Part shown: positions 43,771-64,000 of the stretch, piece by piece | Numbering within the stretch: the stretch's first letter is position 1 | Layout of the letters: the number at the start of each line of letters is the position of its first letter | Assembly: GCA_001600635.1 (NCBI GenBank) | Contig: BCKL01000005.1 | Span: forward strand, 313,581 to 377,580 | Reading direction: 5' to 3' | Length of the DNA: 64,000 nt | Source: Leucosporidium creatinivorum | Taxonomy: Eukaryota > Basidiomycota > Microbotryomycetes > Leucosporidiales > Leucosporidiaceae | The notes under the pieces: model-generated | Seen by the model: the letters and a program-made list of their open reading frames with translations, nothing else | What the model was told of the DNA's origin: nothing | Databases searched by the model: none | Position numbers and translations under genes: made by a program

Positions 43771-44581
43771 ATGGAAGCAGAATTCTCCAACATAGCTATT
43801 AGCTCGACATACGCCCGCCCTCAGCAAGCCTACCGACTCGCCCGCCGCTGCTCCTACTCCTACAGAGACGCTCATTCGCATCCTCGAGCTCGCTTTGGAG
43901 GACCAAGTCGACTCCTTCGAGCGGCAAAGATGAAGTGGCGCCTCGAAAAGGTCAGCTGGCAGTGGTGGACTGCTGCAGGAGAGCAGAGGAACCTCTCGAG
44001 GAGAAGGGAGAAGGGAGAGGTGGAGGGGCTGGTCAGGGCTCTCAGCGCTAACGGCAGCGGTGCAGAGGTGCGGAGCTTGTCGCTGTCGCATGGGTTGATG
44101 GATGGAGCCGCTGCAGGTGCTACGCGTCAGGGGAACGGGGCACAATCTCCCTCCGGCCGCCTCACTTCATGATTCATCTACTCGCCTTGCTTCAAGAGCT
44201 TATACTTTGGCGCACGGGCCACACGGAGCGTACCGAGAGCTTACTGTTGCTCTTCTTGAGACCCTGGACACCCCTCCACCCTCGCTGGGGCGCTTCCAGG
44301 TCGACCTGAGCCTATTCAGCTGGACCGAGGACGGCGAGAGGAGGAGAGCCGAGGTTGAGGAGAAGGCCAAGCTGCTGGCATTTGGCTCGTCTAGTGGCGG
44401 CGGCATCGGTGGTGAGTGTTCCCTTGCTCCTCGCTCTCTATCCTCCTTCGAAGCCTTGCGCTGACCATCTCTCGGACTAGCAGGGCAGCTCGGCGGAAGG
44501 GGAGCAGCTCGCCGTTCAATGGAGAAGCTTATTGAGGGTAGTCCATCCTGTAAAAGCAGCTGCTACTTCCTCTCGAGGTGA
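43771..44581 (+). pseudogene. F-box protein copy 1A, frame-shifted and internally deleted
   Basis: Begins MEAEFSNIAISSTYARPQQ, as in the other cluster members, but the F-box segment that should read PTETLIRILELALED is one frame out. An extra base within 43828-43849 and a lost base near 43925-43935 flank it, after which KVSWQW is back in frame. Near 44113 sequence equivalent to 57625-58245 of copy 1B is missing, joining the middle of the protein to the leucine-rich end. A stop follows the junction (near 44169). The last exon, at about 44484, still has good splice sites. Probably non-functional. Confidence 0.75.
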
Positions 44582-44880
44582 AGGAGCCCGGAGTCGACTT
44601 TGATTGTCACTCTTCTCAGCGAACAGCCAAGTTCAACGCCGAAAGTTGCGCTCCATCTGCTCTCGGACTCGATGTCTCTCAGGCCGAGTGCCAATTATCT
44701 CTACAATCTCCAATAAATCTTCTCCCATGCTACCCCTCACGCCCACCGCTGGCGAAGCTCCTCCTCCGAAACGCCGGTGCGCCGAGCCTGCCTCGAGCTG
44801 AGGTTGGGGACGTGTCGGTGCTGGAGCTCATGCTCATTTGGAGGAGGGGGTGATATCTGGCGATGTAAGAGGGTTTAGCT

Positions 44881-45944
44881 TTAAGTCGAAGTCCCGACGG
44901 AAGTAGAACCGCTCACATGCCACGGCTTCGGCGGCGGCGGCAGTCTCGCCTCCTTGTTGGCAGTCACCTCTCGGACATACTGCAGAGAAGGAACAGACGA
45001 AGTCAGCACCCCATAGCTACAACGCACCGCCAAGCGCGATGCTCACCACTTCATACTCTCGGCAGCACAGCACCACTCGGGCTCGGTCGAAGAAGTTGAG
45101 CTTGTCCCAGTCCTTGTGGCCCAGCCATACAGCCACTGAAGTATGCCGAGGATCACGTTCACAGAACCTCGCCATCCGAAGTGCGACATACTCGACGTAG
45201 GAGGGCAGGACGGATTCTAGCAAGGAGGGTCAGGTTGAGCTCCGCCTGTCGACTCGGGGCGCTCAGCGGCGGCGGTACTCACCACAAAATCGATGCACCA
45301 TGAGCTACAGGATTGTATGAATATCAGTGAGGGCCCCCCGGTAAAGTGTATAGGTCGTCGCACCTCAATGAAGGGACGCTGTCGAAACCACCAGGTGTGA
45401 TCGTGCAACTTGTCATCGCTTTCCTCCACAAGACCGTGATACAGTGACTTCCAGTGCTTCTGGCTTGTACTCCATACAGCAAGCTGAGCGTCGCTCTGCG
45501 TGATCGCAGCCCTGTTCACCCCGAGGAGGTCAGCTTGAACTGGCTCGGCGTTCAGTTGCGCTCGGTGGAGTTTGAGCGCTCAGGCGAGGCAACTCACTTT
45601 GCAAGGTAGACCACATCTAAAAAATGTTTGTGGTACTCCGATGAGAGTTCAGTGAGAGGTGGGCGGAAGAAAGATGCTGCCCCGGTGAACAGCTCGCAAA
45701 ACTCTCGGCGGGCCTCGATTGCCGCTTTGTACTCCATCCGAAGCTGCGCGAGGAGTTCTGTAGGGCGCTGTCGCCCTCCCCCAGAGTACTCTGGAGACAG
45801 AAGTGGCTTCATGTACATCTTCAGAGTCTCCCCAGCCAAATGGTCGACAACGGGCTGAAGTCGCTTCGGAGTCATCGTCTGCCGTAACCTCAAGAGAGCA
45901 GCGTACTCCACGGCACCGAATTGAAGAGGCGGAAGAGTACTCAT
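44881..45944 (-). CDS. Gene X, copy A (unknown family)
   Basis: Five exons (45944-45598, 45511-45364, 45304-45283, 45216-45047, 44979-44881) total 786 nt, 261 residues, in phase. It begins MSTLPPLQFGAVEYAALLRL and ends KPWHVSGSTSVGTST. No domain was recognised. The protein has no signal peptide or membrane span, is rich in Trp, Arg and Tyr, and contains SYVEYVALRMARF and WLGHKDWDKLNFFDRARVVL. Exon 3 is only 22 nt and is conserved in copy B. Two acceptors are TAG. It is divergent from F-box copy 2A across a 593-base promoter that is nearly identical in the other arm. The function is unknown. Confidence 0.85.
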
Positions 45945-46537
45945 TTTGAAGGAAAGGGGAACGGGAAGAGGCAGAAGGAGGAGCAGGATCACAGGCGAGG
46001 ACAGTCTCACAACTTCGCCGAGGGGGAGACGTTCAGCGCTCCGCTGGGTTTCAAGTCTTCGCGGAGCGCACCAGCGATTGTTGAGATCAATATTCGAGTG
46101 CTCTTTCCGTCCTGCTCGCATCGCTTCGACCTGATTCTCTCTCTCTGACGAAGCTCGGCGATGATGAGACGAGGTAGAAGGGTCGAGGCGAGATGCAATG
46201 CGCGGGCGGCTGACGAGTGGCTCACGTTACAAATAGTTCACTGATCCTACTTTGTTCATTCTGCACCACAGACACAGCTCGCCACGGAGGCGCGGAGAAT
46301 GAAGGAAAAGGCTGGAAAGATCAGAGCTCGGCGAAGGGCTTTTTAGAGGCATCGAGCAGCTATGCTACTGCAGTGGAGGCCCAGAACCGAGCAGAATGAA
46401 TCTCAAGGACTCCCAACAACGTAACGACTCGCCTGCACCTGTCCAGCCCTCTTGACCCCTCGCCTCATCTCGCGCCTTCCGTCTCTTGCCCTCCCGCCCT
46501 CACCTCGCTTCTCGTCACTCACCTCCGACAGCTCGCA
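45945..46537. promoter_or_regulatory. Divergent promoter between gene X-A and F-box 2A
   Basis: 593 bases with no coding region recognised. The stretch 46265-46473 is almost identical to the reverse complement of 55245-55453, including a run of about 70 identical bases. This marks it as a conserved regulatory block or a site of recent gene conversion. Confidence 0.6.
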
Positions 46538-47914
46538 ATGGAAGCGCAGCCAGCTCAGCAATCGACCAGCGTCTCCTACGCCCGTCCTCAACAGCCTACA
46601 GACTCGCTCGCGGCTGCTCTGCCCACCGAAACCTTGACGCAGATCTTCGAGCTCGCGATGGAGGAGGAGGACCCTTTCGAGCGCCAGACGACGCGCTCAG
46701 CCTTCAAGCTTGTGTGCTACCACTGGTCCACCTTCCTCCTCAGCCGACCGAGCTCGCCGTCAGCACTTCGACGGAAGCTCAGCGCCTCGCTCGCTTGTTC
46801 GAGCAGGGACTCGTCGCCAACCTCACCTCGCTCGCCATCAGGGTCGACATTGGAGATGCGACGCTTCGGGAGGATGCGCTAGCTCTGCTCAGAGCTTCTG
46901 CGACGTTCGTGATTCGCCTGCACGTCCATGTTGAAGCCGACGACGAGGACATGCCAAAGCTGCCGGAGGATGTGGTCGAGGTGCTAGCAATTATGGGAGC
47001 CATAGAAGAGTTCACAATGGAAGGGGATGTGACCCTGGGCGCGAGTCTGTGTGGGTGAGTAGGGCGCCTCGCAGCGCTCCACCGACCTTCGCTAATCCGC
47101 CCTCCCCAGAGTTCTGAAGTGCTTCGAGGCTTTGCGGTCGCTCAAGCTGGACGTTTACGGGTTTTGCTCGCTCTCCACTTATGGCACCAATCCCGAGCTT
47201 TCAGCTACCTTACGCCATATCGACATCTCCGGCTGCTGGTGTCTGCTCAGCTTCATCAGCTACGTCCTCCCCTACGGCTCCCTACGCTCGCTGGTCCTTC
47301 ACGGAAACGAGGAGCCGCGCCACATGCATTGGGGGGAATCCCACCTCGCCCTTCACATGGGCTCCCTCGCGAAACAGCTCGAGCGCTTCACCGTGCTGGA
47401 CTCGGTCGACGCCTCGACACCGGACTTCGAGGCTCAACTCAGTATGATGCCTCGCCTCAAGTACCTCGAGATTGAGTACGCCTACCGCATTGACCGGGGT
47501 GACTCAGTTGAGCACCCCCTCCTCCCTTCCGTCACTCTTTTGCACACCCTCTCCGACCTCCGAGAGCTAGTACTCCGAGATGACTCGGTGTCAGCGCAGG
47601 GCTCGACAATGGAAGAGGCCGTCAAGCACGTTCTGACACTACCCCCTCCCAAGCTTCAGTACCTACGCATCTACTACGACTCGGAGGAGATCGCATGGAG
47701 GGACGGCGCGAAAGCCGAGCTCGAGACGGCGGCCGAGGCAGCTAACATCTCGTTGAGCTTCTTTCGCACTTGGCAATTCCAAGACAAAGGCGGTGAGTAT
47801 CGAGCTCGTCTACTGCGCTCCATTTTGGAGCTCACGGCTGACCCGTCCGCTCCTGTAGAGGATTATTCCACCTGCACGAGAGAGGACTCGCCCAATCGGG
47901 TTGAGCTCGCTTGA
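46538..47914 (+). CDS. F-box / leucine-rich protein copy 2A, with a frame break after the F-box
   Basis: The F-box is read from ATG 46538: LPTETLTQIFELAMEEEDPF then AFKLVCYHWST. The leucine-rich remainder (PTELAVSTSTEAQRLARLFEQ, LKCFEALRSLKLDVYG, RHIDISGCWCLLSFISY, LVLRDDSVSAQGS, ending DSPNRVELA) is in another frame from about 46750. Between HW and PTE there are 20 bases where the intact paralog at 60 kb has 21. The downstream frame is open from ATG 46486, so a long product without a proper F-box could be made. Introns are at 47055-47109 and about 47792-47858. F-box proteins select targets for SCF ubiquitin ligases. It may be a young pseudogene, a sequencing error, or recoded. Confidence 0.6.
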
Positions 47915-48516
47915 TAGGAATCCAAGCTTAAACGTCGGGATGAGGATGTGAGGAGGCTCGTTTCGCTGTAACACGCCGTCGCTGTCCGAATATTCGGCTC
48001 GAACGAAGAGGGAGCCAGAATTGCGAGCAGAGAGCAACGCCGAAGCGAGCCTGCGGACTATAGCAAAGAGCAGGGAGGGCCGCAGGCGTCGAGGTTGGAA
48101 GTGCATGGCTCCTCCGATCTCTCCGCGAGCGCTGCAAAGGGGATTTCGCTGTAGAGGAAGCGAACGCGGGGCGAGAGATCTCGGGCGAGCCTCGAGCAGC
48201 CTCGCTCTTCTTGCTGCTGCTCCTTCGTCGCCCCGCAGCACAGAGAGGTGCACCATGCCTCTCTGAAGATCCACGAGTAGTCTCGGCTCTCCAAGCTGCC
48301 TCCCATCACGTCAGCGCCCTCCTTCCGCTCCTTCGCATCAGCTCTCCCGTCTCTTCCTCCGAGCGAGCAAGGTTACCAACGGAATACGTACAGACACTCC
48401 AATACCACCTCTATGAACCCTTCCCACCTTTCGCACACTTCTGAGTCCTCCTCACCAGCCTGCTGGCGCTCCCTCGACCACGTCGCTCCTCCTCCGCCGA
48501 TGCTGCACTAGCGAGC
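47915..48516. other. Convergent intergenic region
   Basis: About 600 bases between F-box 2A (+) and the RAMP4-like gene (-). Open frames here show no motif and no splice structure. Nothing further is recognised. Confidence 0.35.
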
Positions 48517-48891
48517 TTATTTTGAGCGAAGCTTGACGGGTGCAGGAAGGATTGCATTGACGATGAGCTGGATAAGCTCAAAGAGGACTGTATGCATCGT
48601 ACAGTCAGCGACAAGGCGTAGCTGGAACGCGTCGAGCACGCGCTCAGCTCTACCGCGAGCGAAAGAACGACGTACAGCCTCCTCCGAGCAAGAGCAAGAA
48701 GGTCCAAACGAGCCATCTCGGGATGGGCTTCTTCTTGTCCAACGGGTCCACGACTTTGAGGGGAGCGCGCTTGCCGGCGTTGGCGTTCTGAGCTGCCTTG
48801 CGCTTGCGGAGCTCAATGTGGCCGACGGGCTGAGGCTGTAGGGTCTCCTATTAGCTGACATATCGAGCTACAGAGCTGGCTTATTCACCAT
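48517..48891 (-). CDS. RAMP4/SERP-like small ER membrane protein (Ysy6 type)
   Basis: Three exons: ATG alone (48891-48889), then about 48837-48680, then about 48605-48517. Together they encode 77 residues. The sequence runs MPQPVGHIELRKRKAAQNAN, a basic KRAPLKVVDPLDKKKPIP linker, and one membrane span (RWLVWTFLLLLGGGFLFELI) with short tail QLIVNAILPAPVKLRSK. Size, tail-anchored layout and the K-P-I/V-P-W start of the span fit the RAMP4/SERP1/Ysy6 family, which binds the Sec61 translocon and protects new membrane proteins under stress. The first intron begins directly after the start codon (gtgaataag) and ends CCCTACAG, with CTAAT as branch site. The family assignment is by eye and moderately sure. 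Confidence 0.65.
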
Positions 48892-49788
48892 GGCTCTTGA
48901 GAGACGAGAAGCAGAAGCGACGAAGAAGCAGGAGCGAGAGCTGGATCCGAGCTGCGAAGCTCGAGGGCCGTGGCTTCGCTGAGCTCGAGGGAACGCTTCG
49001 GTCGGAGTTGTAAGGCAGCAGAAAGTAGGTTCACTAATCTAGAATCTACTGCAGCTAATCTCCTGTAACCTAACACCACTACAAGCAAACTCCGAAGCGA
49101 CTCCATCCGTTTGCAAACTAACGTTCTCTCACCAGCATCAAATCCCCCATCTATACATCCCATAGCTCATTCCAGCTGCTCCCCTTTCACCCTCCAGCAT
49201 ACTCGAACACAGCTGCCAGCCTCAGAAGAGAGACGACGCGGTTCGAGCGGGCGCTGAAGGGCGTCAAGCGAGCTGCTGGAGCGAGGAGATGTAGTAGAGT
49301 ACAGGAACGAGCTTTGAGGAGACCTTGCGGGTCGAGTTATCGTCATGGGAGTCGCTTGTGGAAGCTGTAGGTGCTGCTGCTGAGGAAACAGCGCGCAGGG
49401 CAGAGCGCATCGTCTGTGGAAGAGCAGAGGATCAGTAAGGCTGTCTGAGTGCAGAAAGGTGGTTCAGCTCACCTAGTTCACGACTGACTGCCCCGCCTTG
49501 CTCTGGTACACGGCGCGACAGGCGGGCGGGATCGAGACGAGGCGCTCCGAGGTTGAGGGGAGAGGAAGAGAGGCAAGAAGGCTGAGTCGAGCAAGAAGTC
49601 TCGTTGCCGAAGCTAGACCGAGCTATCTCGCTACATGTGAGGCGAAAGATTCGCAGATTCTTCCTCTCTGCAAGCACAGCAAGCAGCTCTCGAAGATCAC
49701 CCTCTCCCATCTCACGCCTTCGCCGAGCATCGAACGAGACATAACCCAGGGGTTAACAAGCTACAATCAGCGCCCCTCGCTCTCCTAC
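48892..49788. promoter_or_regulatory. Spacer: RAMP4-like promoter and RBBP4 3' flank
   Basis: About 900 bases, more AT-rich than its surroundings in places (49020-49160). No protein or RNA gene was recognised. Short frames on either strand look random. Confidence 0.35.
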
Positions 49789-51916
<2,128 letters not shown>

Positions 51917-52346
51917 GTTGGGCTGGTGCTAGCGTGTGCTACAGCTGAAGAGAGCTGTGGAGCTACGGATTAGCTGTAAGAAGGCGCAGAGGGCGCTGTT
52001 AAACGACGAACGCAGAGCAAGTCGCGTCGAGCGGGCAAGGGACGCGCTTTGAAGGTGATGAAGGGAAGAAGAAAGAGGCTGTGTAGGCTGCAGAGTCAGT
52101 AGGGGTTTCCTGTAGTCGATTGTAGCAGCCGCACGAGGTTGAACCTGAAGCGAGGTGAAAGCGGGAGTGAGAGATCGGAGCTTCGAGTGATTGCCAGGCG
52201 AGAGAGGCGACGAGCAGCTTGATCTCCTGGGCTTCACTTCTGCTTGCTCTTCGCTCTTCGCTCTCTGTTCGACCGGACATATCGACCTACAGCTCTCGCT
52301 AAGCCTCAACTTGCACCTCACGAGCTCCCGCCTCTCCCAGCCCGAG
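51917..52346. promoter_or_regulatory. Divergent promoter, RBBP4 / HIS6
   Basis: 430 bases between divergent start codons. No coding region is recognised. Confidence 0.4.
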
Positions 52347-53650
52347 ATGAGCGTCTTCCGGCCGTGCATCGACCTACACAGCGGTCAAGTCAAGCAAATC
52401 GTCGGAGGGACTCTCGATACATCAGACCTCAAGACCAACTTTGTCTCTGTGTGAGCTACAGCTCTCCATCTCCCGGCGCTGCTGCTCCTGGCTAATCGCC
52501 CTTCCTCGCTTGATTCGACCACCGAGCAGCCATCCTCCCGCCTACTACACCAACCTTTACCACGAGAACAATCTACGAGGTGGTCATGTCATCAAGCTCG
52601 GGCCTGGGAACGACGAGGCTGCGAAGGAGGCGCTCGCTGCTTGGCCAGGTGAGTCGAGCTTACTAGCGTGCTCCTCGTCAACTTTGCTGACCCTCCACAT
52701 CACTCCACAGACTCCCTCCACCTCGGCGGCGGGATCACCGACTCGAACGCCCTGGAATGGCTCGACGCTGGAGCCGAGAAGGTACTTCGCTCTCCCGTCC
52801 TCTTGCGCCGAGCTTCGGCTAACCCAGCTCCCTTCATCCAACAGGTCATCGTCACCTCCTACCTCTTCCCTCAGGCCAAATTTGACCACGAACGCCTGCG
52901 GAGACTGAGCGAGAAGGTCGAGAAGAAGCGATTGGTCGTGGATGTTAGGTTGGTCTTGCTCTCTTCGCTCGGTCAGCACAAGCAAGCAGTCGCTGATGCT
53001 GTCGTCCACCTATCGAACAGTTGCCGGAAGCGGGAAGACCGATGGGTGGTAGCGATGAACCGGTGGCAGGATCTGACCGACATGGACGTGAACGAGGGTG
53101 AGCTGATTCTTGACCTCTTGCTCTGAGCCTACCTGGCTGATCTTCTCTCTCTTTCTCAATCTCTCAGAATCCCTCGCCCTCCTCGCAGACCACTCCTCCG
53201 AGTTCCTCATCCACGCCGCCGACGTCGAAGGGCTGTGTCAAGGCATCGACGAGCAATTGGTCGAGAGTCCGTCGATCCGCTCCTTCTCCACCTATCTACG
53301 AATGCTCACATCGCTTCTCGTTCCTCGCAGAGCTCGGCCAATGGTGCAAGATCCCCTCCACCTACGCCGGCGGAGCTCGGAGCACGTCTCCCTCTCTCTC
53401 CATCCTCCTCGCTCACAGCTGACCCTCCTCCCTTCCGCTTCACTAGATATTGCCGACCTCGAGCTCGTGAACAAGCTCTCGAACGGCCAGGTCGATCTGA
53501 CATTCGGAAGGTGAGCCCCCGCCTCGTTTTAGGCGCGCCGAGCTTTCGCTGATTCTCGTTTCGGTCGCTCGCAGTGCGCTCGATATCTTTGGTGGCGCGA
53601 CGGCCAAGTTTGAGGATCTGGTGGCGTACAATAAGCGAGTAACGGCGTAG
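52347..53650 (+). CDS. HIS6: ProFAR isomerase (histidine biosynthesis)
   Basis: Starts [21 protein letters not shown] (52347), ends [14 protein letters not shown] with TAG at 53648-53650. The TIM-barrel motifs of HisA/His6 are present: [13 protein letters not shown] with the catalytic Asp, [20 protein letters not shown] with the phosphate loop, [45 protein letters not shown], and TYAGGA with [29 protein letters not shown]. The enzyme catalyses the fourth step of histidine synthesis, an Amadori rearrangement of ProFAR to PRFAR. About seven introns are present. The length of roughly 270 residues matches yeast His6 (261). Confidence 0.93.
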
Positions 53651-53887
53651 CGCAATCTACTACATTAAGCTGCCGATGAGACTTGGAAGCGGCGCATCGA
53701 GGTGTCTTGCTGCTCGCCAGTCTCCTCCTGAAACTTGGCATCAGAGAAGGAGGAGCTTTGCATATGTAAGCTAGGCATAGCTATTAGTAAACCAAGCTCC
53801 GAGCTTCAGGTTCAGCATCACCTGCGAAGAGATCATCGGCAGTCAGCTCGACTGTCGCTCTCGGCTCAGCGTCCTCGGTTCGGCACC

Positions 53888-55170
53888 TCACCACATGGGC
53901 AACTCAATGCCGCCGGCTTTCGCGGCCCTCTCGACCGTCAACGATGTGTTGTAACTCCATACGTCATACCAAAGACTCGGCGGGAGAGAAACGCTGACAA
54001 GTGAGGGAGGGGAGGATGAGAGGTAGTCAATGATCTGTTGCGAGGAGATGAGCTTTAGGCGGCTCGTGTCCGAGTAGGTCCCCACTTGGAGCAAGAAGTA
54101 GCGGAGGGTAGGGATGTCGGTGAGGAGGGTAAAGAGGTGGGCGAGGTCGTAGCCCTCGAGGCCGAGGGTGAGAGCTCGCACCGAGGTGAGCTCCTTGAAA
54201 GTCGAGTTGAGGTAGCTGGCCGTCGCACGAGGTGCTTGATGTGGTCCGCCCAGAATCCAAGCGCGCTCGCCGTCGAGGCAGAAGGACGTGAGTTGGCCGA
54301 GGACGGGCTTGACGATCTCGAGCACGGCCTCTCCCTGGGTCGAATACACTTCTCCGACGTCGAGCCTTCGGAGAGTGCTTTGCGTCGCATTGATCAACGC
54401 TTTCATGAGAGGGAGGTCGTCGGTGGCGCGGAGGGAGAGCTCGACAAGGCAGGTCGGCGGGTGCTTCAATTCGGGACTCGGAGGGGTTTGCTGATTGAAG
54501 CGGCGAGACCAACTCATGGACAAGTCGTAGAGAGAGAATCTGGTGAGGTCAGGCCATGCTTCGAACAGCCTGCGTGCTCGAGGCCGTTAGTGACGAGTTG
54601 TCCAAGGCGAGCGCCGAGCTCACCTGTCGAGCACGGCGGGCGGAACGACGCGAGGTGCCAGAATCTCGAGCTCGCGCATGTTGGAGAGGGTAGCTAGAGC
54701 ATCTTGAATAGGCTTGCCGAGCACTCCGTCGGTCTTCTGTCGTCCTGCAGCGCACAGCTCCCGCTCCACCGTGATCGTAACGCGCTCGAGGTTCGGGCAG
54801 AGCTTGAGAAGCCTCGCGATCCTAGCTCCACGTCCTGCGGTCTGGTCCTTCTCGGCGGTGATGTCGAGAGAGCTCACAGTGAGGTGCGAGTCCTCCACAG
54901 TCTGCAGCAAGTCGGAGAGTCTTTCCGCTTTGGCGGTGGAAGCGACGACCCAGCGCGCGGGAGAGGGACGGCGGCCGAGCACCACGAGCGGCACACTAGC
55001 CCGTACTTGACGCGCTGCGCCTGCCCCTTCTCCTCGTTGGGCCAGATGAAGTGCTGTAGCGCGAGCTCAAAGATGCGAGTGAGCGTTTCGACGGGCAGCG
55101 TGGCGGCGTAGGCTTCTGTAGGCTGTTGCGGGCGGATGCTGGTAGCTTGTTGAGCTGGTTAAGCTTCCAT
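53888..55170 (-). pseudogene. F-box / leucine-rich protein copy 2B, degraded start and frame break
   Basis: The start that aligns with copy 2A (ATG 55170-55168) reads Met-Glu-Ala and then TAA. The F-box LPVETLTRIFELALQHF follows and KYGLVCRSW is visible, but the continuation RWVVASTAKAERLSDLLQT is in another frame, broken at the same place as in copy 2A. The leucine-rich part (LKLCPNLERVTITV, LSNMRELEILAPRV, LRALTLGLEGYDLAHLFTL, LRYFLLQVG) remains open to TGA at 53888 (ending KAGGIELPMW), with one good intron near 54565-54625. An ATG at 54994 could start a truncated product without the F-box. Confidence 0.7.
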
Positions 55171-55807
55171 CGCGAGCGGTCGGAGATGAGAGACGAGTTG
55201 CGAGGTGAAAGCGGGAGTACAAGAGACGAGAGGCGCCAGGCTGGGCGAGATGAGGCGAGGGGTCAAGAGGGCTGACAAGGTACAGGCGAGTCGTTACGTT
55301 GTTGGGAGTCCTTGAGATTCATTCTGCTCGGTTCTGGGCCTCCACTAGAGTAGCATAGCTGCTCGATGCCTCTAAAAAGCCCTTCGCCGAGCTCTGATCT
55401 TTCCAGCCTTTTCCTTCATTCTCCGCGCTCCGTGAGGAGCTGTGTCTGTGGTACAGAAATGAACAGAGTAGGAACACTGACCTGTACGCAAAACGAGCCA
55501 CTCGTGAGCCGCCTGCCGCCTGCCCATTGCATCTCGCCTCGACCGTTCTACCTCGTCTCCTCATCGCCGAGCTACAATAGAGCAAGAGAATCGGGCCAAA
55601 GCGATGCGAGGAGGACGGAAAGAGCACTCGAATACTATCGATCTGAACGAACGCTGGTGCGCTCCGCGAGACCTGAAGCCCAGCGGAGCGCCCTCGCTCT
55701 ACTCAGCGCTTGCTCCTCGGCGAAGCTGTGAAACTGCCCTTGCCCGTCGATCTGCTCTTTCCTCCTTCTCTCCACCTTTCCTGTTTCTAAATCCTCGCTC
55801 TGCCACT
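55171..55807. promoter_or_regulatory. Divergent promoter between F-box 2B and gene X-B
   Basis: 637 bases. Nearly identical in blocks to the promoter at 45945-46537 in reverse orientation. No coding region is recognised. Confidence 0.6.
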
Positions 55808-56838
55808 ATGAGCGCTCCACTTCGCTTTGGCCCTGTAGAGCGTGACGACCTCCGCCGACTCAAATCCGAAATCACTTCCGCCGACTTGGAGCCTGTAGAG
55901 AACCAGTGGCGTGGGCGCACGCTGTTCGGTTCAGCTCTCATGACGCCGGTACCGTACTTCGAGCATACAGATACTCGCCGACGTACTGCAGAGAGTATAG
56001 CAGCGTTTCGGAGCGAGTACAAGTCGGCTATCGAGGCTTGCCGCGCCTTCTGTGTGTCTTTCACTGGTGATGCGCCGTTCTTTCATGGAGATCTGGGAGA
56101 TCGCCTAGACTTTCAAGAAGCTCAAGACCTAGCTCGGTAAGCTCTTTTCCCCAACCTGCGCAACTCGGTGCCCTCCGCCGAAGTTGAAGCAATATGTATG
56201 CGCCTTGGCGTCGTGCAGGGACGCCATCGAGCAGAGTCGCAGGCAGCGTTCTGCTATAGACAAAGGTTCCAATTTCTGGTCGGACTACTACAAGACCCTC
56301 GTAGAGGACGAGGCGGACTTCGAGCTCCCTCCGAAGAGAGGCCTGTTGAACATACGTCCATTTATCAAGGCAAGGCAAGGAGTTGCTTTGAGCAGGATCA
56401 CAACGCAGCCTGACCTCTTCGTCCCCGGCAGCTCATGGTCCGACACTTCTGCAGTGAGCTTTGCCCGGTGCTGAACCGTAGCCGCAGTGGGCGCTGACCT
56501 CGGCGTGGGTGTGCCAGCTGAGCTTCTCCGCCAGTACATCACATATGTGGCACTGCGGATGGCGCGAAAGTTCCGGTACAACCCTGGGCAGTCTTCAATG
56601 GTGGTCTGGGTTGGCTATCAGGAGTGGGATCGGCTCACCTTGCTCAACCGAGCCCGAGTCGTCCTCGCAGCTCAAGAGTATGACCTAGTAAGTGGATGAT
56701 AGCTCAGTGGGAGCTCTCCAGTATAAGCTACTGAATTTCACCTGTACCTGGTAGTACGCTCGCAGGTGGCGGGCATCACCGGCCACCGAACGACACTTGC
56801 TGCTGAAGCCTTGGCATGTGAGTGAGGAGTGGCGGTGA
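55808..56838 (+). CDS. Gene X, copy B (unknown family)
   Basis: Five exons (55808-56136, 56219-56369, 56432-56453, 56518-56687, 56755-56838) total 756 nt, 251 residues, in phase. Exons 3 and 4 have exactly the same lengths (22 and 170 nt) as in copy A. It begins MSAPLRFGPVERDDLRRLK and ends LLLKPWHVSEEWR. Shared features with copy A include FGxVE near the start, YITYVALRMARK, VWVGYQEWDRLTLLNRARVV and KPWHVS. In the first 33 aligned residues after the start region about 14 are identical. The second intron has a GC donor (56370-56371) where copy A has GT; the matching phase and position support it. Function unknown. Confidence 0.85.
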
Positions 56839-57366
56839 ACAACCACCCAACGAGCAGAAGCTCATATGCAACGTCTGTACAGATGCGATTCAACATTGAA
56901 GAGTCTGTAACTACCACCACCTCTCCTGAGCTCGAGCACCGACACGTCCCCAACCTCAGCTCGAGGCAGGCTCGGCGCACCGGCGTTTCGGAGGAGGAGC
57001 TGCGCCAGCGGTGGATGTGAGGGGTGCTTCAGAGGAGAGACGATGTATTGAAGATTGTCGAGCTCATTGAGACCCAGCCCGAGAGACATCGAGTCCGAGA
57101 GCAGATGGAGCGCAACTTTCGGCGTTGAACTTGGCTGTTCGCTGAGAAGAGTGACAATCAAAGTCGACGCCGGGCTCCTTCACCTCGAGAGGAAGTAGCA
57201 GCCGCTTTTACATGATGGACTACCCTCAATAAGCTCCTCCATCGAACGGCGAGCTGCTCCCCTTCCGCCGAGCAGCCCTGCTAGTCCGAGAGATGGTCAG
57301 CGCAAGGCTTCGAAGAAGGATAGAGAGCGAGGAGCAAGGGAACACTCACCACTGACGCCGCCGCCA
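56839..57366. other. 3' flank of gene X-B and F-box 1B, conserved between arms
   Basis: About 530 bases. 56925-57215 corresponds to the reverse complement of 44552-44830 and is almost identical over the first 130 bases next to F-box 1. No coding region is seen. It is likely 3' UTR of both genes. Confidence 0.5.
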
Positions 57367-58655
57367 CTAGACGAGCCTGCCAGCAGCTTTGGCCTTCTCC
57401 TCGACCTCGGCTCTCCTCTCGCCGCCCTCGGTCCAGCTGAACAGGCTCAAGACAGTCTGGAAGCGCCTCACCGAGGGTGGAGGGGCGTCCAGGATTGCAA
57501 GACGATCAGGACTGAGCTCGTTGGTACGCTGCCTACCGCCCGTGCGCCAAAGTATAAGCTCTTGAAGCAAGGCGAGTTGACGAAGTGAGGCGGCCGGAGG
57601 GAGATTGTGCCCCGTTCCCCTGACGTTGGGGAGCGGGCGTGTACCCGAATAGCCGATCTCCAGTTGTCGTAGATCCGTCATGCTGCCGATAAGCTGGTCG
57701 AAGGCAGGCGAGGGCTGCCAAGGGTCGGGCGCCGAGAAGCGATGGAGGCGTGAAGCAAGGGGAGAAGTGCCTCGGCTACCTCTGGGTCCAACGAGCGCAG
57801 CCGTCAAAGTCTCTGACGATGAGCGAGCGAGGTAGCTCCGAGTCCTCGATCTCGGGGAGGAGCGAGCGGATCATAGAAATGTCGGCGAAGATGTCGAGAT
57901 GCCGAAGGGCGACGGTGGGCTGCGAGTGGAGCATATAGGGCTCATCGGCAAAAAGGCAGCTGAGCCTGAGTGATCGCAGAGCTGGCCAGGCGCGTAGAAG
58001 CCTGCAGAGCGAGGTCAGCAAGGGGCGCTCGACTCGGCAAGGACACAAGACTCACCGGAAGAGCGTCAACGGTCCTGTCGCGCCGAGGAAGACAGCCTCT
58101 CCAATCTCCTTGAGCCCCAGCATAGCCCTTACGGCTTTCTCATCCCCCTCGGCGGAGTCGAACTGGCGACCCGGCTCCAGGTCAGCTTCTTGAGCGCCGA
58201 GCAGAGCCTCAGAAGCTCCGCTGTAGCATCTGCAACAGCTCCATCCACCATAGAGTGTGACAGTATTGGGCTCTGTACTTCAGCACCTCTACCGCTAACG
58301 CGAAGGCTCTGACCAGCCCGTCCATCTATCTCTCGTCCTCGAGAGCAACGTCCATCTGCTCTCCTGCAGCAGTCTACCACTGCCAGCTGACCTTCTGGAG
58401 GTACCACCTGCTCCTGTGCCGCTCAAACGAGTCGTGTTCGTCCTCCAAAGCGAGCTCGAGAATGCGAAGAAGCGTTTCTGTAGGAAGAGCAGCGGCGCAC
58501 GAGTCTGTAGGCTGTTGAGGGCGGGCGTAGGTGGTGCTGGTAGAGTGCAGAGCTGGCCGAACGTCCATTGCGAGCTGTCGGAGGTGAGAGATGAGATGCG
58601 AGGTGAGACCGGGAGAACAAGAGACGAGAGGCGCCAGCTGGGCGAGATGAGGCAA
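57367..58655 (-). pseudogene. F-box / leucine-rich protein copy 1B, with stops
   Basis: Starts MDVRPALHSTSTTYARPQQP and reads a good F-box (LPTETLLRILELALEDEH, KVSWQW), but a TAG follows at 58374-58376 where relatives continue with Ser/Trp-Thr-Ala. The rest is recognisable (DGAVADATAELLRLCSALKK, LRAWPALRSLRLSCLFADEP, FDQLIGSMTDLRQLEIGYSG, ASLRQLALLQELILWR, LFSWTEGGERRAEVEEKAKA). A one-base shift near the end moves it out of the frame used by copy 1A and stops it at 57367. It retains the segment that copy 1A has deleted. Confidence 0.75.
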
Positions 58656-59014: not shown

Positions 59015-60267
59015 TTAAGCGCCACGGAAGAAGATGAGTGAGATGCCAGTCGCTTCGGCAGCGACCTCGAGTTCCTCCCTTCCCTCCTCCGTCCAGCCTT
59101 TCGTGAGCTTCGAGGAGACCTTGATGCGCTTGAGCTTGGGAGGCGCTACAAAGAACGCTTCGTGCAGAGCTCCGAGGAGCCTGGCTCCCGACATCGAAAG
59201 CGGTGTATCGAGCACAACGAGTTCCTTCAGCTCGGCGAGGGTTTGAAAAATGGGAAGGCGAGCACCGTTGACGCTCGAGTTGAGGATGGCGACGAGAGGC
59301 GAGATTGAGCCGAGTTCAAGTCGCTGGATGTTCATCATGCCTCTAAGGAGCTCATTGAAGGCAGGCGAGGGGAACCAGCCGTCTGGGGTTGAGAACTGGC
59401 GAAGTCGCCGAGCGAAGGGCTGCAGCAGCTTGGCGCATTTGGCTTCCGGAAGGCCACGATCAAGCGACTTGCTTATACTGAGTGAGGAAGGAATCGATTC
59501 GGATGGCAGTTCACGCAAGAACGGAGCGAGGAACTCGGCGCTGGCGGGGAGGTCGAGGTGCTCGAGGACGGGGGCGCTTGCGAACGCATCAGGTGGTAGG
59601 GGTAAGCCCCAGGGATAGTCCTGCGTGGAGATCTTGAGAAGACGAAGACTCTTCCAGGCTCGTAGACACCTGAAAGACGAAGTCTTCAGCGATGTCGGTA
59701 GCTCGCAATCGGGGGCACTCACAAAGGAAGTGTATCGAAGGACAATAGACCGCCTTGAAGAGTGAGGACTTGTAAGCTTTGTTGTAGCATTCTGGTCTGT
59801 GCCATGCGTGGGAAGCAACAGCTTTCGAATCTCACTTCTCCCGCTGCAAACTCTCCCGGGCGAGCGCGGGGCGTTGCGAAGTAGAGGTGTCGAACTCTGC
59901 AGACTCGCAGTAGGAACAAGTATCCTCGATAGCTGATATCATCACCATACGAGGGAACTCGAAGGGCGAGCAGCCTGAGTGACTTGTCCTTCGAGCCCTT
60001 GAGCGAACGAGCGAGCGAGTCGGCCTGCTCCGAAGTACTGACGGCGTACCCGGTAGGCTCCTCGACAGCAGTCGACCACTGCCAGCTGACCTTTTGGAAG
60101 CTCCACCTTATTCTCTGCCTCTCGAACGGCTCCTCCTCAGCTTCCAGCACGAGCTCGAGGATGCGAATGAGTGTCTCTGTGGGAAGAGCAGCGGCGGGCG
60201 AGTCGTCGGGTTGCTGAGGGCGGGCGTATGTCGAGCTGACAGCTAGCTTGAAGAATTCTGCTTCCAT
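59015..60267 (-). CDS. F-box / leucine-rich protein, intact member of the cluster
   Basis: Two exons (60267-59723, 59669-59015) total 1200 nt, 399 residues. It starts MEAEFFKLAVSSTYARPQQP, with F-box LPTETLIRILELVLEAEEEPF and QKVSWQWSTAVEEPTGYAVST. Leucine-rich segments follow (RSLKGSKDKSLRLLALRV, AWKSLRLLKISTQDYPWGLP, VLEHLDLPASAEFLAPFL, GMMNIQRLELGSISPLVAIL, TLAELKELVVLDTPLSMSG), and it ends EVAAEATGISLIFFRGA. The F-box should bind Skp1 and the leucine-rich part the substrate, in an SCF E3 ubiquitin ligase. This is the only one of five cluster copies with an unbroken frame, so it serves as the reference for judging the others. Confidence 0.8.
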
Positions 60268-61291: not shown

Positions 61292-64000
61292 ATGTCAGCG
61301 ACCAACAGCAGCCTCCGAACCAAGGCCAAGAAGCCGTCGACCATCCTCGCTTGGGGAAAGGATTTGATCGGCTACGATGAGCAGGTCGCAGACGTGGACA
61401 CGCCCAACCCATTGCGCGACGCGTTCCATGACCTGCCGAGCAAGACGACCTCCTACCTTCAAACGCTGTTCCCCTTCACCAAATGGATCCTGCACTACAA
61501 TCTCACCTGGTGAGTTTGGAGGAGGCCGCGTTTGTAGCCTCTGGTTGCCTCCAGAGGACGTCTCAATACCTCGGCCGCTGACCCATCCCTCGGCGCTGCG
61601 CAGGTTTCTCGGCGATCTGATCGCAGGCCTCACAGTCGGCATTATCGTCGTCCCACAGTCCATGAGGTGCGTACAAGATCATACCTCCTTCTGTCACCCT
61701 CCTCGTCGACTCGGCCCGCTCACGAGGAGCTGCGCATGTCGCTTCGGCGGCCCCGTCTCGTCCGCCCAGAGTTGAACGCTGACCTCTTGTCGCACTACAG
61801 CTACGCCAAGATCGCTACTCTCGACCCCGAGTACGGTCTCTACTCGTCCTTCGTCGGCGTGATGATCTACGCCCTTTTCGCTACCTCCAAGGATGTGACG
61901 ATCGGACCCGTCGCCGTCATGTCGCTCGAAGTAGGCAAGGTCATCAGCCATGTGCAGTCGCAGACCGGAGGAGACGTCTACACGGCGCCCGAGATTGCCA
62001 CCGCCCTCGCCTTCATCACAGGAATGATCGTGCTCGGCGTTGGACTTCTTCGGCTCGGATGGCTCGTCGAGTTCATTCCTGCGCCTGCAGTCTCCGGCTT
62101 CATGACTGGTAGTGCTAGTGAGTGATTTCTCGAGCGCTATTCGACGCTGGATGGCGATGCTGACTCTGCTCCTCATCGCAGTCTCGATTCTGGCTGGCCA
62201 AGTGCCGAGTCTGATGGGTTACTCGAACAAGTTCGACACTCGCGCACCTACCTACGAGGTCATCGTGAGTCTTGCGAGCACACCGACAGCTCAACTACAA
62301 ACGCTGACTCTCATCTCTCCGCAGATCAACTCTTTCAAGCATCTCCCCGACACGAAGAGGGACGCCGCTTTCGGTCTCACATCCCTTGTCTTCCTCTTCA
62401 TCGTCCGCGCCATCTTCCAACGCATCCAGCTCCGCGCTCGCAACCCTCTCGTTCGCCGCATCGCTTTCTTCGCCAACACCCTTCGCTCCTCCTTTGTCAT
62501 CATTTTCGTCACTGTCGCCAGCTGGGTCTACCTTCGTAGCTACCCTCGCGGTCAGTATCCCATCTCCATCCTCAAGACTGTCCCCTCTGGGTTCCAGCAC
62601 ATGGGCCCGCCTCTCATCAGCGCCGACCTCATCTCGCGCCTCGGCCCTCTCATTCCCGTCTCCACCATCATTCTCCTCCTCGAGCACATCGCTATCGCAA
62701 AGTCGTTCGGTCGTGTGAACAACTGTACGTGCCTATTCTGCTACAGCGCCCCCTCTCCCTTCGGCTCTCAGCCAACCGCCGAATCGTAGCGCTGACCTTC
62801 TCCTCGCTCTTCAGACAAAATCGACCCCAACCAAGAGCTCATCGCCATCGGAGTATCGAACACCATCGGCACTCTTTTCGCCGCCTACCCTGCTACTGGA
62901 TCGTTCTCTCGCTCGGCCGTCAAGGCCAAGGCAGGCGTTCGCACTCCTCTGGCTGGTTGGATCACCGGTATTGTCGTCATCATCGCTCTCTACGCCCTCA
63001 CGGGCGCCTTCTACTGTGCGTTACAGGTCTTATTCGCTTCAACGAGCCCAGCTGACCCGCTTGCCATCTCGCAGGGATTCCCAACGCCGGTCTCTCGGCC
63101 ATCATCATCCACGCCGTCGGCGACCTCATCGCCACTCCTCGTCAAGTCTTTGGCTTTTGGAAGATCTCGCCTCTCGAAGCTCTCATCTGGATCGCCGCCG
63201 TCATCACCACCGTCTTCTCCTCGGTCGAGACGGGCATCTACGTCTCGGTCGCCGCCTCAGCCGCGCTCCTCCTCTACCGCATCGCTCGCCCTAGGGGACA
63301 GTTCCTCGGTCGCGTGAGGCTTCATGCGGAGGTTGAGAACCCCGTCGTCAACCCGCAGACGCACAGGGATGTCTACCTCCCTCTCGTCCCCGATGGCGTT
63401 CGCAACCCCGCGGTCCGAGTCGATGCCCCTCCTCCTGGTGTCATTGTCTTCCGCTTCGAGGAGTCTTTCCTTTACCCCAACGCCAGCTTTTGTGAGTACA
63501 GGCCTGTGCTGCAGCTTCGACCGCACGGGAGCTGACCTTTGCCCCTCTTCTAGACGCCGACGTGGTCCTGGACTACGCCAAGAAGCACACTCGCTCGGGA
63601 CAAGACTTCACTGCTACCAAGACTGGAGACCGACCATGGAATGGTGCGTCCTCATCCACTCTCAAAGCGGCGCTCGAAGCTGACCGCCTCTTTAACAGAT
63701 CCCGGACCGCTTCGCTGGGCCAAGTCGAAGCCTCCTCCCGAGGGCCAACTCAGTCAAGCCGAGATTGAAGCGCAAAAGCCCATCCTTCGCGCCGTCGTTT
63801 TCGACTTCTCCTCCGTCTCCAACTGCGACACCACCTCGATCCAGAACTTGGTCGACCTTCGCCGAGTACTCGAACGCTACGCTGGTCGCGAGGTCGAGTT
63901 CCACTTTGCTCAGATCTTGACGCCGTGGATCAAGCGGTGAGTGAACATCCCTTCCAGGTGATATCAACGCGTCGAGGATTCCGCACTTGACACTCGTTGC
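61292..64000 (+). CDS. SulP sulfate permease (Sul1/Sul2 type), partial at the window edge
   Basis: Starts MSATNSSLRTKAKKPSTILA (61292). After a cytosolic N-terminus comes WILHYNLTW and the SulP signature FLGDLIAGLTVGIIVVPQSMSYAKIA. Membrane segments follow (SSFVGVMIYALFATSKDVTI, ALAFITGMIVLGVGLLRLGW, AVSGFMTGSA, LVFLFIVRAIF, FVIIFVTVASWVYL, VSTIILLLEHIAIAKSFG, GTLFAAYPATGSFSRSAVKA, TGIVVIIALYALTGAFYW), and then a C-terminal STAS domain (RAVVFDFSSVSNCDTTSIQN, EVEFHFAQILTPWIKR). Such proteins import sulfate at the plasma membrane for assimilation. At least nine introns are present. The coding region is cut off inside or near the STAS domain; the last visible donor is near 63939. Confidence 0.92.

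What the first reader, a model, noticed from the sequence alone, without database searches (positions are those of the whole stretch)
45945..55807. Promoters almost identical but coding sequences diverged in an inverted F-box/X duplication
The X/F-box-2 intergenic block at 46265-46473 matches the reverse complement of 55245-55453 almost base for base, with a run of about 70 identical bases. The X/F-box-1 3' block at 44552-44680 matches 57085-57215 similarly. Yet the two gene X proteins agree at only about 14 of the first 33 aligned residues, and the F-box 2 proteins are barely alignable past the F-box. Non-coding DNA being far better kept than the flanking coding DNA is the reverse of the normal pattern. 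Either gene conversion maintains the control blocks, or the proteins diversify under selection (self/non-self recognition, conflict with a parasite, or a poison/antidote-like pair). The conflict idea is inference only.
Basis: partly seen in the sequence, partly recalled or inferred. Interest (0 to 1): 0.82.

Follow-up and report, generated by a model that had tools for sequence, protein, structure and literature searches.

The report
Shared promoters between diverged fungal gene pairs
In a yeast-like fungus, two mirror-image copies of a gene pair share an almost identical stretch of promoter DNA although the genes on both sides are old and very different, most simply because DNA was recently copied between the promoters, and a similar pattern recurs in part of a local family of about 15 such genes.

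Summary
Block 46265-46473 matches the inverse of 55245-55453 at 200 of 210 columns, longest identical run 80. The X genes on one side agree at 41% of residues. The F-box genes on the other side are not sisters (AU p 0.0016). The framing needs correcting: introns and silent sites of X have diverged as far as the codons (introns 41%, dS 2.6, dN/dS 0.22), so this is a recently shared tract within old DNA, not fast coding against slow non-coding DNA. Gene X is an orphan family: 15 modelled copies on one contig within 274 kb, no relative found in protein searches. Of 14 copies with upstream DNA held, 11 stand head-to-head with an F-box gene or remnant. A promoter hump recurs in four other pairs, and trees show some X genes and F-box partners re-paired. 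Best reading: ectopic gene conversion or recombination at the shared promoters of mostly inverted copies. The poison/antidote idea is not supported here: all four F-box genes flanking the intact X1 and X2 are broken.

The parts
44881..45944 (-). Gene X1: orphan protein, 261 aa, 5 exons (45944-45598, 45511-45364, 45304-45283, 45216-45047, 44979-44881)
   Evidence: open through all exons, four introns at the same positions as X2; no homolog, no Pfam family for X1 and no PDB match at the thresholds used
55808..56838 (+). Gene X2: paralog of X1, 243 aa, 5 exons (55808-56136, 56243-56369, 56432-56453, 56518-56687, 56755-56838); intron 2 has a GC donor
   Evidence: 39-41% aa identity with X1, introns 41%, dS about 2.6
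45973..46657 (.). Tract T2, arm A: bidirectional X1/F-box 2 promoter, running into the F-box 2 5' end; core 46265-46473
   Evidence: 80.9% over the tract, 94-98% in 100-column windows of the core, falling off to both sides
55060..55769 (.). Tract T2, arm B (inverted): X2/F-box 4 promoter; core 55245-55453
44125..44830 (.). Tract T1, arm A: 3' coding remains of dead F-box 1 plus DNA between it and the X1 3' end
   Evidence: 89.5% to 57625-56927; 94-99% in windows starting 44370-44570
56927..57625 (.). Tract T1, arm B (inverted): 3' coding remains of dead F-box 3 plus DNA between it and the X2 3' end
43771..44700 (+). F-box 1, pseudogene (frameshift in the F-box region, about 600 bp missing relative to F-box 3); 3' end approximate
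46538..47914 (+). F-box 2: head-to-head partner of X1; one net frameshift just after the F-box, otherwise open
53888..55170 (-). F-box 4: head-to-head partner of X2; stop at codon 4 and a net frameshift
   Evidence: tree places it with FB393, FB272, FB201 and FB228
57370..58568 (-). F-box 3, pseudogene (two TAG in the matched F-box region); 3' end approximate
59015..60267 (-). F-box 5: intact F-box/LRR-like gene, 399 aa, one 53-base intron
46007..46023 (-). X-specific promoter element (X1 variant CCTCGGCGAAGTTGTGA), outside the T2 core
   Evidence: alignment; sequence
55715..55731 (+). X-specific promoter element of X2 (CCTCGGCGAAGCTGTGA), outside the T2 core
   Evidence: C5:369295-369311
48600..53656 (.). 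Region between the inverted arms, without a self-match in the window, including a WD40 gene (49792-51123, -)
   Evidence: WD40, 6.1e-21

Best explanation
The window holds two inverted members of a local family of head-to-head gene pairs: an orphan gene X and an F-box/LRR-like gene facing away from one shared promoter of about 0.45-0.8 kb. The gene bodies are old paralogs. The promoter (T2) and the 3' block (T1) were copied between the arms much later by non-allelic gene conversion, or by crossing-over that re-paired the flanking genes. That leaves X as an island of old divergence between young tracts. SHOWN: the tracts, the saturated X bodies, the non-sister F-box partners, similar humps in other pairs, and re-pairing in trees for one trio of pairs (X394, X401, X443). 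INFERRED: that the exchange starts in the nucleosome-poor bidirectional promoter (which would give the identity gradient to both sides) and stops in X because the bodies are too diverged to pair or because mixed X genes are lost. Also inferred: that flipping the 9 kb between the inverted promoters can swap the F-box partners. Function, inferred only: the F-box/LRR proteins are SCF substrate receptors, and X is a co-transcribed partner or target that does not depend on its own F-box neighbour.
For: (1) X1/X2 silent sites saturated (pS 0.73, dS 2.6) and introns 41% (shuffled 31 +/- 9) against 200/210 in the core. (2) X1 is closer to X238 in body (48% aa, dS 1.53) than to X2 (41%, dS 2.60; both dS near saturation), but its promoter scores 48% with X238 and 79% with X2. 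(3) F-box 2 + F-box 4 as sisters rejected, p-AU 0.0016. (4) No other X promoter showed the core, and the short element common to the X promoters lies outside it. (5) T1 is 94-99% alike at and just beyond the 3' ends of genes dead in both arms. (6) Humps also in X271/X284, X178/X284, X178/X271 and X394/X401; of 9 X pairs with promoters at least 60% identical, 8 have promoter above body. (7) Re-pairing: X401+X443 rejected (p 0.0001) although FB402+FB444 are sisters (100/98); FB393+FB402 rejected (p 0.00004) although X394 and X401 share a clade with X422 (100/100). (8) The opposite tract, X227/X238 with body 98.2% over 1145 bp and promoter 84% over 226 bp, shows that tracts are not tied to non-coding DNA.
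Against: X1+X2 as sisters is not rejected (p-AU 0.144), so on the X side the argument rests on saturation, not topology. Over all 105 X pairs the promoter exceeds the body in only 32. The peak is not always mid-promoter: in X394/X401 it lies over the X start (95%), in X271/X284 one of two peaks lies at the F-box start, and in X401/X443 it lies in the F-box 5' end; this weakens a single fixed start point. One comparison fits joint descent of X and F-box: FB272+FB228 are sisters (97/91), and X271 with X227 and X238 is not rejected (p 0.10). No second strain or species was available. A meiotic hotspot is assumed, not measured.
Confidence: 0.76

Rival explanations
1. Regulatory constraint: the bidirectional promoter is under very strong purifying selection and was kept since the X1/X2 split while the genes drifted apart.
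For: The hump sits on or near the promoter in several pairs. A short element is common to the X promoters, and its 17-base pattern has 9 exact matches in 27.7 Mb, each at an X promoter (the pattern was derived from these promoters).
Against: Only two promoters showed the core. X238, closer to X1 in body than X2 is, does not share it. The family element lies outside the core. A similar level of identity occurs at and beyond the ends of dead F-box genes.
Confidence: 0.1
2. Recent inverted segmental duplication of the whole unit, after which X and F-box of one arm were replaced by diverged versions (cassette replacement), leaving T1 and T2 as remnants.
For: T1 and T2 lie on both sides of X in the same order in both arms. 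T1 stops rather sharply at the X 3' end. In X422/X443 the 3' match also begins near the X 3' end (424004-425821 with 442541-440756).
Against: No close donor was found in the genome: over the whole protein the best relative of X1 is 48% and of X2 41%; single exons of X1 reach at most 64% over 56 residues in other copies. On the T2 side identity falls gradually into both genes. It also needs ectopic recombination, so it differs from the best reading mainly in direction.
Confidence: 0.1
3. Diversifying selection or conflict: X and F-box proteins evolve fast under selection for difference (self/non-self, poison/antidote), and conversion through X is selected against.
For: Orphan, locally amplified family with several dead copies. 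In the one X pair with near-identical bodies (X227/X238), X227 is split from its promoter by an insert. wtf spore killers show near-identical upstream sequence and very distinct neighbours (PMC5478263, passages read).
Against: dN/dS 0.22-0.55 in nine comparisons (averages over whole genes, mostly with high dS, so selection at a few sites is not excluded). All four F-box genes flanking intact X1 and X2 are broken. Some partners have been re-paired, which fits poorly with co-adapted pairs.
Confidence: 0.12
4. Assembly or haplotype artefact.
For: A few N bases (one in the window) and the inverted layout.
Against: Same 1.26 Mb contig, both arms different throughout, pattern repeated at several places.
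Confidence: 0.02

Closest known systems
wtf spore-killer genes of Schizosaccharomyces pombe (PMC5478263 and PMC11497594: passages read)
   Same: Multigene family with dead members, near-identical upstream block (288 bp conserved_up) in front of diverged genes; upstream sequences homogenised by non-allelic gene conversion; members of one cluster very distinct
   Different: X has no homolog found in protein searches, is paired head-to-head with F-box/LRR-like genes, was not tested for dual transcripts, and the homology arms are mostly inverted unit copies rather than LTRs
HMA4 triplication in Arabidopsis halleri (PMC3749932: passages read)
   Same: Ectopic conversion among paralogs makes segments of one locus follow different histories
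   Different: There coding sequences are homogenised and promoters mostly keep separate histories; here, in 8 of the 9 X pairs with alike promoters, the promoter is the better kept part
Human Y palindromes with arm-to-arm conversion (recalled, no call)
   Same: Inverted copies as conversion partners
   Different: Here the arms are short, patchy and mostly diverged
Plant S-locus, S-RNase with linked SLF F-box genes (recalled, no call)
   Same: Clustered F-box genes beside an unrelated partner gene
   Different: X matched no Pfam family beyond chance level, no mating-type linkage found, X itself multicopy; resemblance only
F-box/LRR (FBXL-type) SCF receptors
   Same: F-box motif, LRR-like model, top PDB fold matches include COI1, TIR1, FBXL17 and Skp2
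   Different: A large clustered family with many broken members, for which the one profile search made found three proteins outside this genome (only 7996 candidates scored)

Membership tests
Ectopic (non-allelic) gene conversion between paralogs | A tract far more alike than silent sites of adjacent genes | tested here: met
   core 200/210 against dS 2.6 and introns 41%
Ectopic (non-allelic) gene conversion between paralogs | Tract genealogy conflicts with genealogy of the flanking genes | tested here: met
   F-box side: FB2+FB4 rejected p 0.0016. X side inconclusive: p 0.144
Ectopic (non-allelic) gene conversion between paralogs | Tracts independent of coding status | tested here: met
   introns outside tracts diverged; X227/X238 coding tract 98.2%; T1 begins in dead coding sequence
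Ectopic (non-allelic) gene conversion between paralogs | Polymorphic tracts between strains | not testable with these tools
   one genome only
F-box/LRR SCF receptor | F-box domain | tested here: met
   PF12937 in 4 of 7 full-length members at E up to 1, best 1.4e-06; FB5 itself 0 families; FB2 N-terminal frame only 0.096
F-box/LRR SCF receptor | LRR fold | tested here: inconclusive
   relative P0001: alpha/beta repeats, mean pLDDT 68; Foldseek best E 9.4e-07 to COI1, but TM-scores of the listed matches are nearly all under 0.5
F-box/LRR SCF receptor | Skp1 binding | not testable with these tools
   bench test
Toxin-antidote pair (X poison, F-box antidote) | Both members kept intact together | tested here: not met
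   X1, X2 open; F-box 1-4 broken. An F-box gene elsewhere could still serve
wtf-type spore killer | Sequence relationship to wtf | tested here: inconclusive
   no hit for X by single sequence or 10-row profile, but the search needs shared 5-residue words; no direct comparison with wtf made
wtf-type spore killer | Poison and antidote isoforms | not tested
   needs transcripts
Mating-type locus | Linkage to pheromone receptor or homeodomain genes | tested here: not met
   STE3 hits only on C25, Homeobox_KN hit only on C24, X array on C5; contigs could still share a chromosome

The most novel reading that the evidence does not exclude
The X/F-box array is a combinatorial recognition or drive system. 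Shared bidirectional promoters in inverted copies serve as standing recombination sites that re-pair orphan X genes with different F-box/LRR receptors, while selection keeps each X body distinct.
Probability: 0.12. Interest if true: 0.85.

Novelty: new variant of a known kind. Interest (0 to 1): 0.5.

Why it matters
Concerted evolution usually keeps genes alike and lets flanks drift. Here, in several pairs, the shared promoter is what is kept alike and the genes are not, in a head-to-head family that has also swapped partners. If promoter-centred exchange is the cause, clustered bidirectional pairs would be a general place where gene partnerships are reshuffled, and single-gene trees of such families would mislead. 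The orphan X family, with its own promoter element and about 15 copies on one contig, also looks like an undescribed fungal gene family as far as these searches reach (paper listing).

Tried and rejected
Rejected: (a) fast coding evolution (silent sites and introns equally diverged); (b) a family-wide conserved promoter (most X promoters do not align; only a short element is common); (c) a known structured RNA in the block (Rfam: 0 matches in the window at gathering threshold); (d) mating-type locus; (e) obligate X/F-box pair (broken partners, re-pairing).

Led nowhere: the structure of X exon 1 (mean pLDDT 43) was not used. PDB search with the X profile gave 0 matches, and Pfam on the X family one chance-level hit (1 of 10 members, E 0.12). 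One search failed because a stretch held stop codons; open frames were used instead. Of the literature searches, none of the papers listed is, by title and abstract start, about an F-box/orphan array (searches listed 10 of 286 and 10 of 330 papers); supplied the comparison papers.

Weak points of my own: gene models of the other copies come from a home-made spliced aligner. X178 (7 introns), X422 (odd introns) and the X169 remnant are poor models; X169 was left out of the trees and pair tables, which hold 15 copies. X185, X203, X250 and X394 carry apparent lesions but stayed in trees and pair tables. X227 was anchored at the wrong start, because an insert of about 450 bp splits it from its promoter, so its promoter column there understates. 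Second exons of several F-box models (for example FB272, FB201) are poor, so the F-box tree uses the first 190 residues. Two F-box stretches (177 kb, 283 kb) were dropped from it as too broken. Only about 211 kb of C5 was held. The six AU tests were chosen after seeing the trees; X1+X2 and FB2+FB4 were named beforehand.
Full report
WHERE. The window is C5:313581-377580 of a 27.7 Mb, 63-contig genome. Two of the three F-box relatives found are from the basidiomycete yeast Leucosporidium creatinivorum (lineage); the better one reaches 65% over exon 1 with a gene of this genome, so the host is probably a relative. This is inference.

OBSERVATION. Self-comparison of the window shows inverted matches 44125-44830/57625-56927 (89.5%) and 45973-46657/55769-55060 (80.9%). 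The core 46265-46473 matches at 200 of 210 columns with an 80-base run. In 100-column windows the identity peaks at 98% in the promoter; X lies at 34-69% and F-box 2 past its F-box at 21-54%. Of 500 random 209-mers of the window 14 have a comparable second match: nine in a tandem repeat at 34-35 kb and five inside these two tracts.

GENES. X1 (261 aa) and X2 (243 aa) are both open over five exons with four introns at the same places and share 39-41% of residues. Aligned introns agree at 41% (shuffled 31 +/- 9), silent sites are saturated (dS 2.6) and dN/dS is 0.22, rough because of saturation. So X is old throughout, exons and introns, and was kept by purifying selection on average. The full-length F-box models have 378-419 residues: PF12937 matches 4 of 7 members scanned; a model of relative P0001 (mean pLDDT 68) has F-box and LRR proteins among its top fold matches, with modest TM-scores. 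F-box 1, 2, 3 and 4 are broken and F-box 5 is intact.

FAMILY. X has no relative found by single sequence or 10-row profile in a database of 5.8 billion proteins (the search depends on shared 5-residue words). The same database returned three F-box relatives, so fungal proteins of this group are in it. In its own genome all 35 matches of X1 and all 28 of X2 lie on C5, between 169.7 and 443.6 kb, giving 15 modelled copies and one remnant. Of 14 copies with at least 1.3 kb upstream or a partner in the held DNA, 11 have an F-box gene or remnant starting head-to-head within 1.3 kb; at least 5 of these 11 F-box genes are broken (177, 224 and 283 kb, F-box 2, F-box 4). X185, X238 and X250 have none (X185 only a chance-level hit, E 0.22); X422 could not be judged. 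F-box matches number 73, of which 43 on C5 from 18 to 716 kb, the rest on C2, C3, C17, C50, C52 and C62. Of the 74 matches of at least 100 bp and 82% on the held part of C5, 21 lie within 20 kb of each other, and 18 of these 21 are inverted (my count).

PROMOTER AGAINST BODY. For all 105 pairs of 15 X copies I compared 500 bp upstream and 1200 bp of body. The promoter exceeds the body in 32 pairs. Nine pairs have promoters at least 60% alike, and in 8 of these the promoter exceeds the body (X1/X2 79 against 51, X178/X284 74/46, X178/X271 72/48, X185/X250 67/50, X394/X401 80/63, X271/X284 78/63, X401/X443 63/52, X203/X250 61/50; the exception is X185/X203, 64/65). Of nine pairs profiled, five show a hump over the intergenic DNA with decline into both genes (X1/X2, X271/X284, X178/X284, X178/X271, X394/X401). 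The peak is not always central: in X394/X401 it lies over the X start (95%), and in X271/X284 one of two peaks lies at the F-box start. In X401/X443 the peak is in the F-box 5' end, X394/X443 is weak, and X185/X203 and X185/X250 are patchy. The opposite also occurs: X227/X238 bodies match at 98.2% over 1145 bp, while the promoters match at 84% over 226 bp and X227 is split from its promoter by an insert of about 450 bp.

CONVERSION OR CONSTRAINT. Constraint predicts that copies closer in body share the promoter. X1 is closer to X238 (48% aa, dS 1.53) than to X2 (41%, dS 2.60), but its promoter scores 48% with X238 and 79% with X2. The core had two full matches in the genome. The element common to the X promoters has the core CCTCGGCG in 14 of 15 rows (X227, wrongly anchored there, has it at its original promoter) and begins about 80-120 bp before the X start. 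The pattern CCTCGGCGARGCNGTGA gives 9 exact hits in the genome, all nine at X promoters, and 0 for the reversed control. The pattern came from these promoters, so only its absence elsewhere is news. It lies outside the core. T1 is 94-99% identical at and just beyond the 3' ends of F-box genes dead in both arms. These points favour recent copying.

RE-PAIRING. FB4 belongs to a five-member clade with FB393, FB272, FB201 and FB228 (100/100), FB2 does not, and FB2+FB4 is rejected (p 0.0016). X394, X401 and X422 form a clade (100/100), but FB393+FB402 is rejected (p 0.00004). FB402+FB444 are sisters (100/98), but X401+X443 is rejected (p 0.0001). So neighbours across the shared promoter can have different histories, and a breakpoint in or near the promoter is the simple cause. 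Other results: X1+X2 as sisters is not rejected (p 0.144); FB272+FB228 are sisters (97/91) and X271 with X227 and X238 is not rejected (p 0.10), which fits joint descent; X394+X401 alone is not rejected (p 0.40); X227+X271 without X238 is rejected, as expected from the X227/X238 match.

MECHANISM. Inferred: in various lineages recombination hotspots lie in promoter-like regions (PMC11703093, start of abstract in the listing). A break in a bidirectional promoter, repaired from the inverted neighbour, would give a peak of identity with decline to both sides. Diverged bodies would stop the tract, or selection would remove mixed X genes. An exchange with crossing-over between inverted promoters would flip the segment between them and swap F-box partners. 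None of these steps was observed.

CONFLICT IDEA. The upstream-conserved, body-distinct pattern resembles wtf spore killers, where neighbours in a cluster are very distinct and diversifying selection was proposed (PMC5478263, passages), and where upstream sequences are homogenised by conversion (PMC11497594, passages). Here dN/dS is below 1 in all nine comparisons made, all four F-box genes flanking X1 and X2 are dead, and some partners are re-paired. So a tight poison/antidote pair is unlikely, while some role in recognition or drive is open. The array is not on the contigs of the STE3 or homeodomain hits.

VERDICT. Real and correctly located, partly misframed. It is an instance of a known process in a gene family for which I found no description, with an unusual focus on the shared promoter.

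Noticed in passing
window 33887-34434 and 34984-35531: Direct duplication of 548 bp at 98.9%; no Pfam family for the one open frame scanned there; that frame holds an unknown base.
   Followed up: partly
C5:380742-381797 and 387528-386473 (L005): Another inverted repeat, 1056 bp at 98.5%, 4.7 kb apart, just right of the window; a 146 aa open frame in both copies, not identified.
   Followed up: partly
C5:228124-227674 (L044): X227 is split from its own promoter and first codons by an insert of about 450 bp with internal repeats, while its body matches X238 at 98%.
   Followed up: partly
C5:18-716 kb, C2:27-142 kb, C17:311-370 kb, C50, C52, C62: Large F-box family concentrated in a few regions; DNA just upstream of F-box starts matches that of F-box 2 at about 70-89% also in members on C5 that have no X beside them.
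   Followed up: partly
window 56370-56431: Intron 2 of X2 appears to use a GC-AG splice pair where X1 has GT-AG.
   Followed up: no
window 61538-62122: Part of a sulfate permease gene (PF00916, 2.4e-33) beyond the F-box cluster.
   Followed up: no
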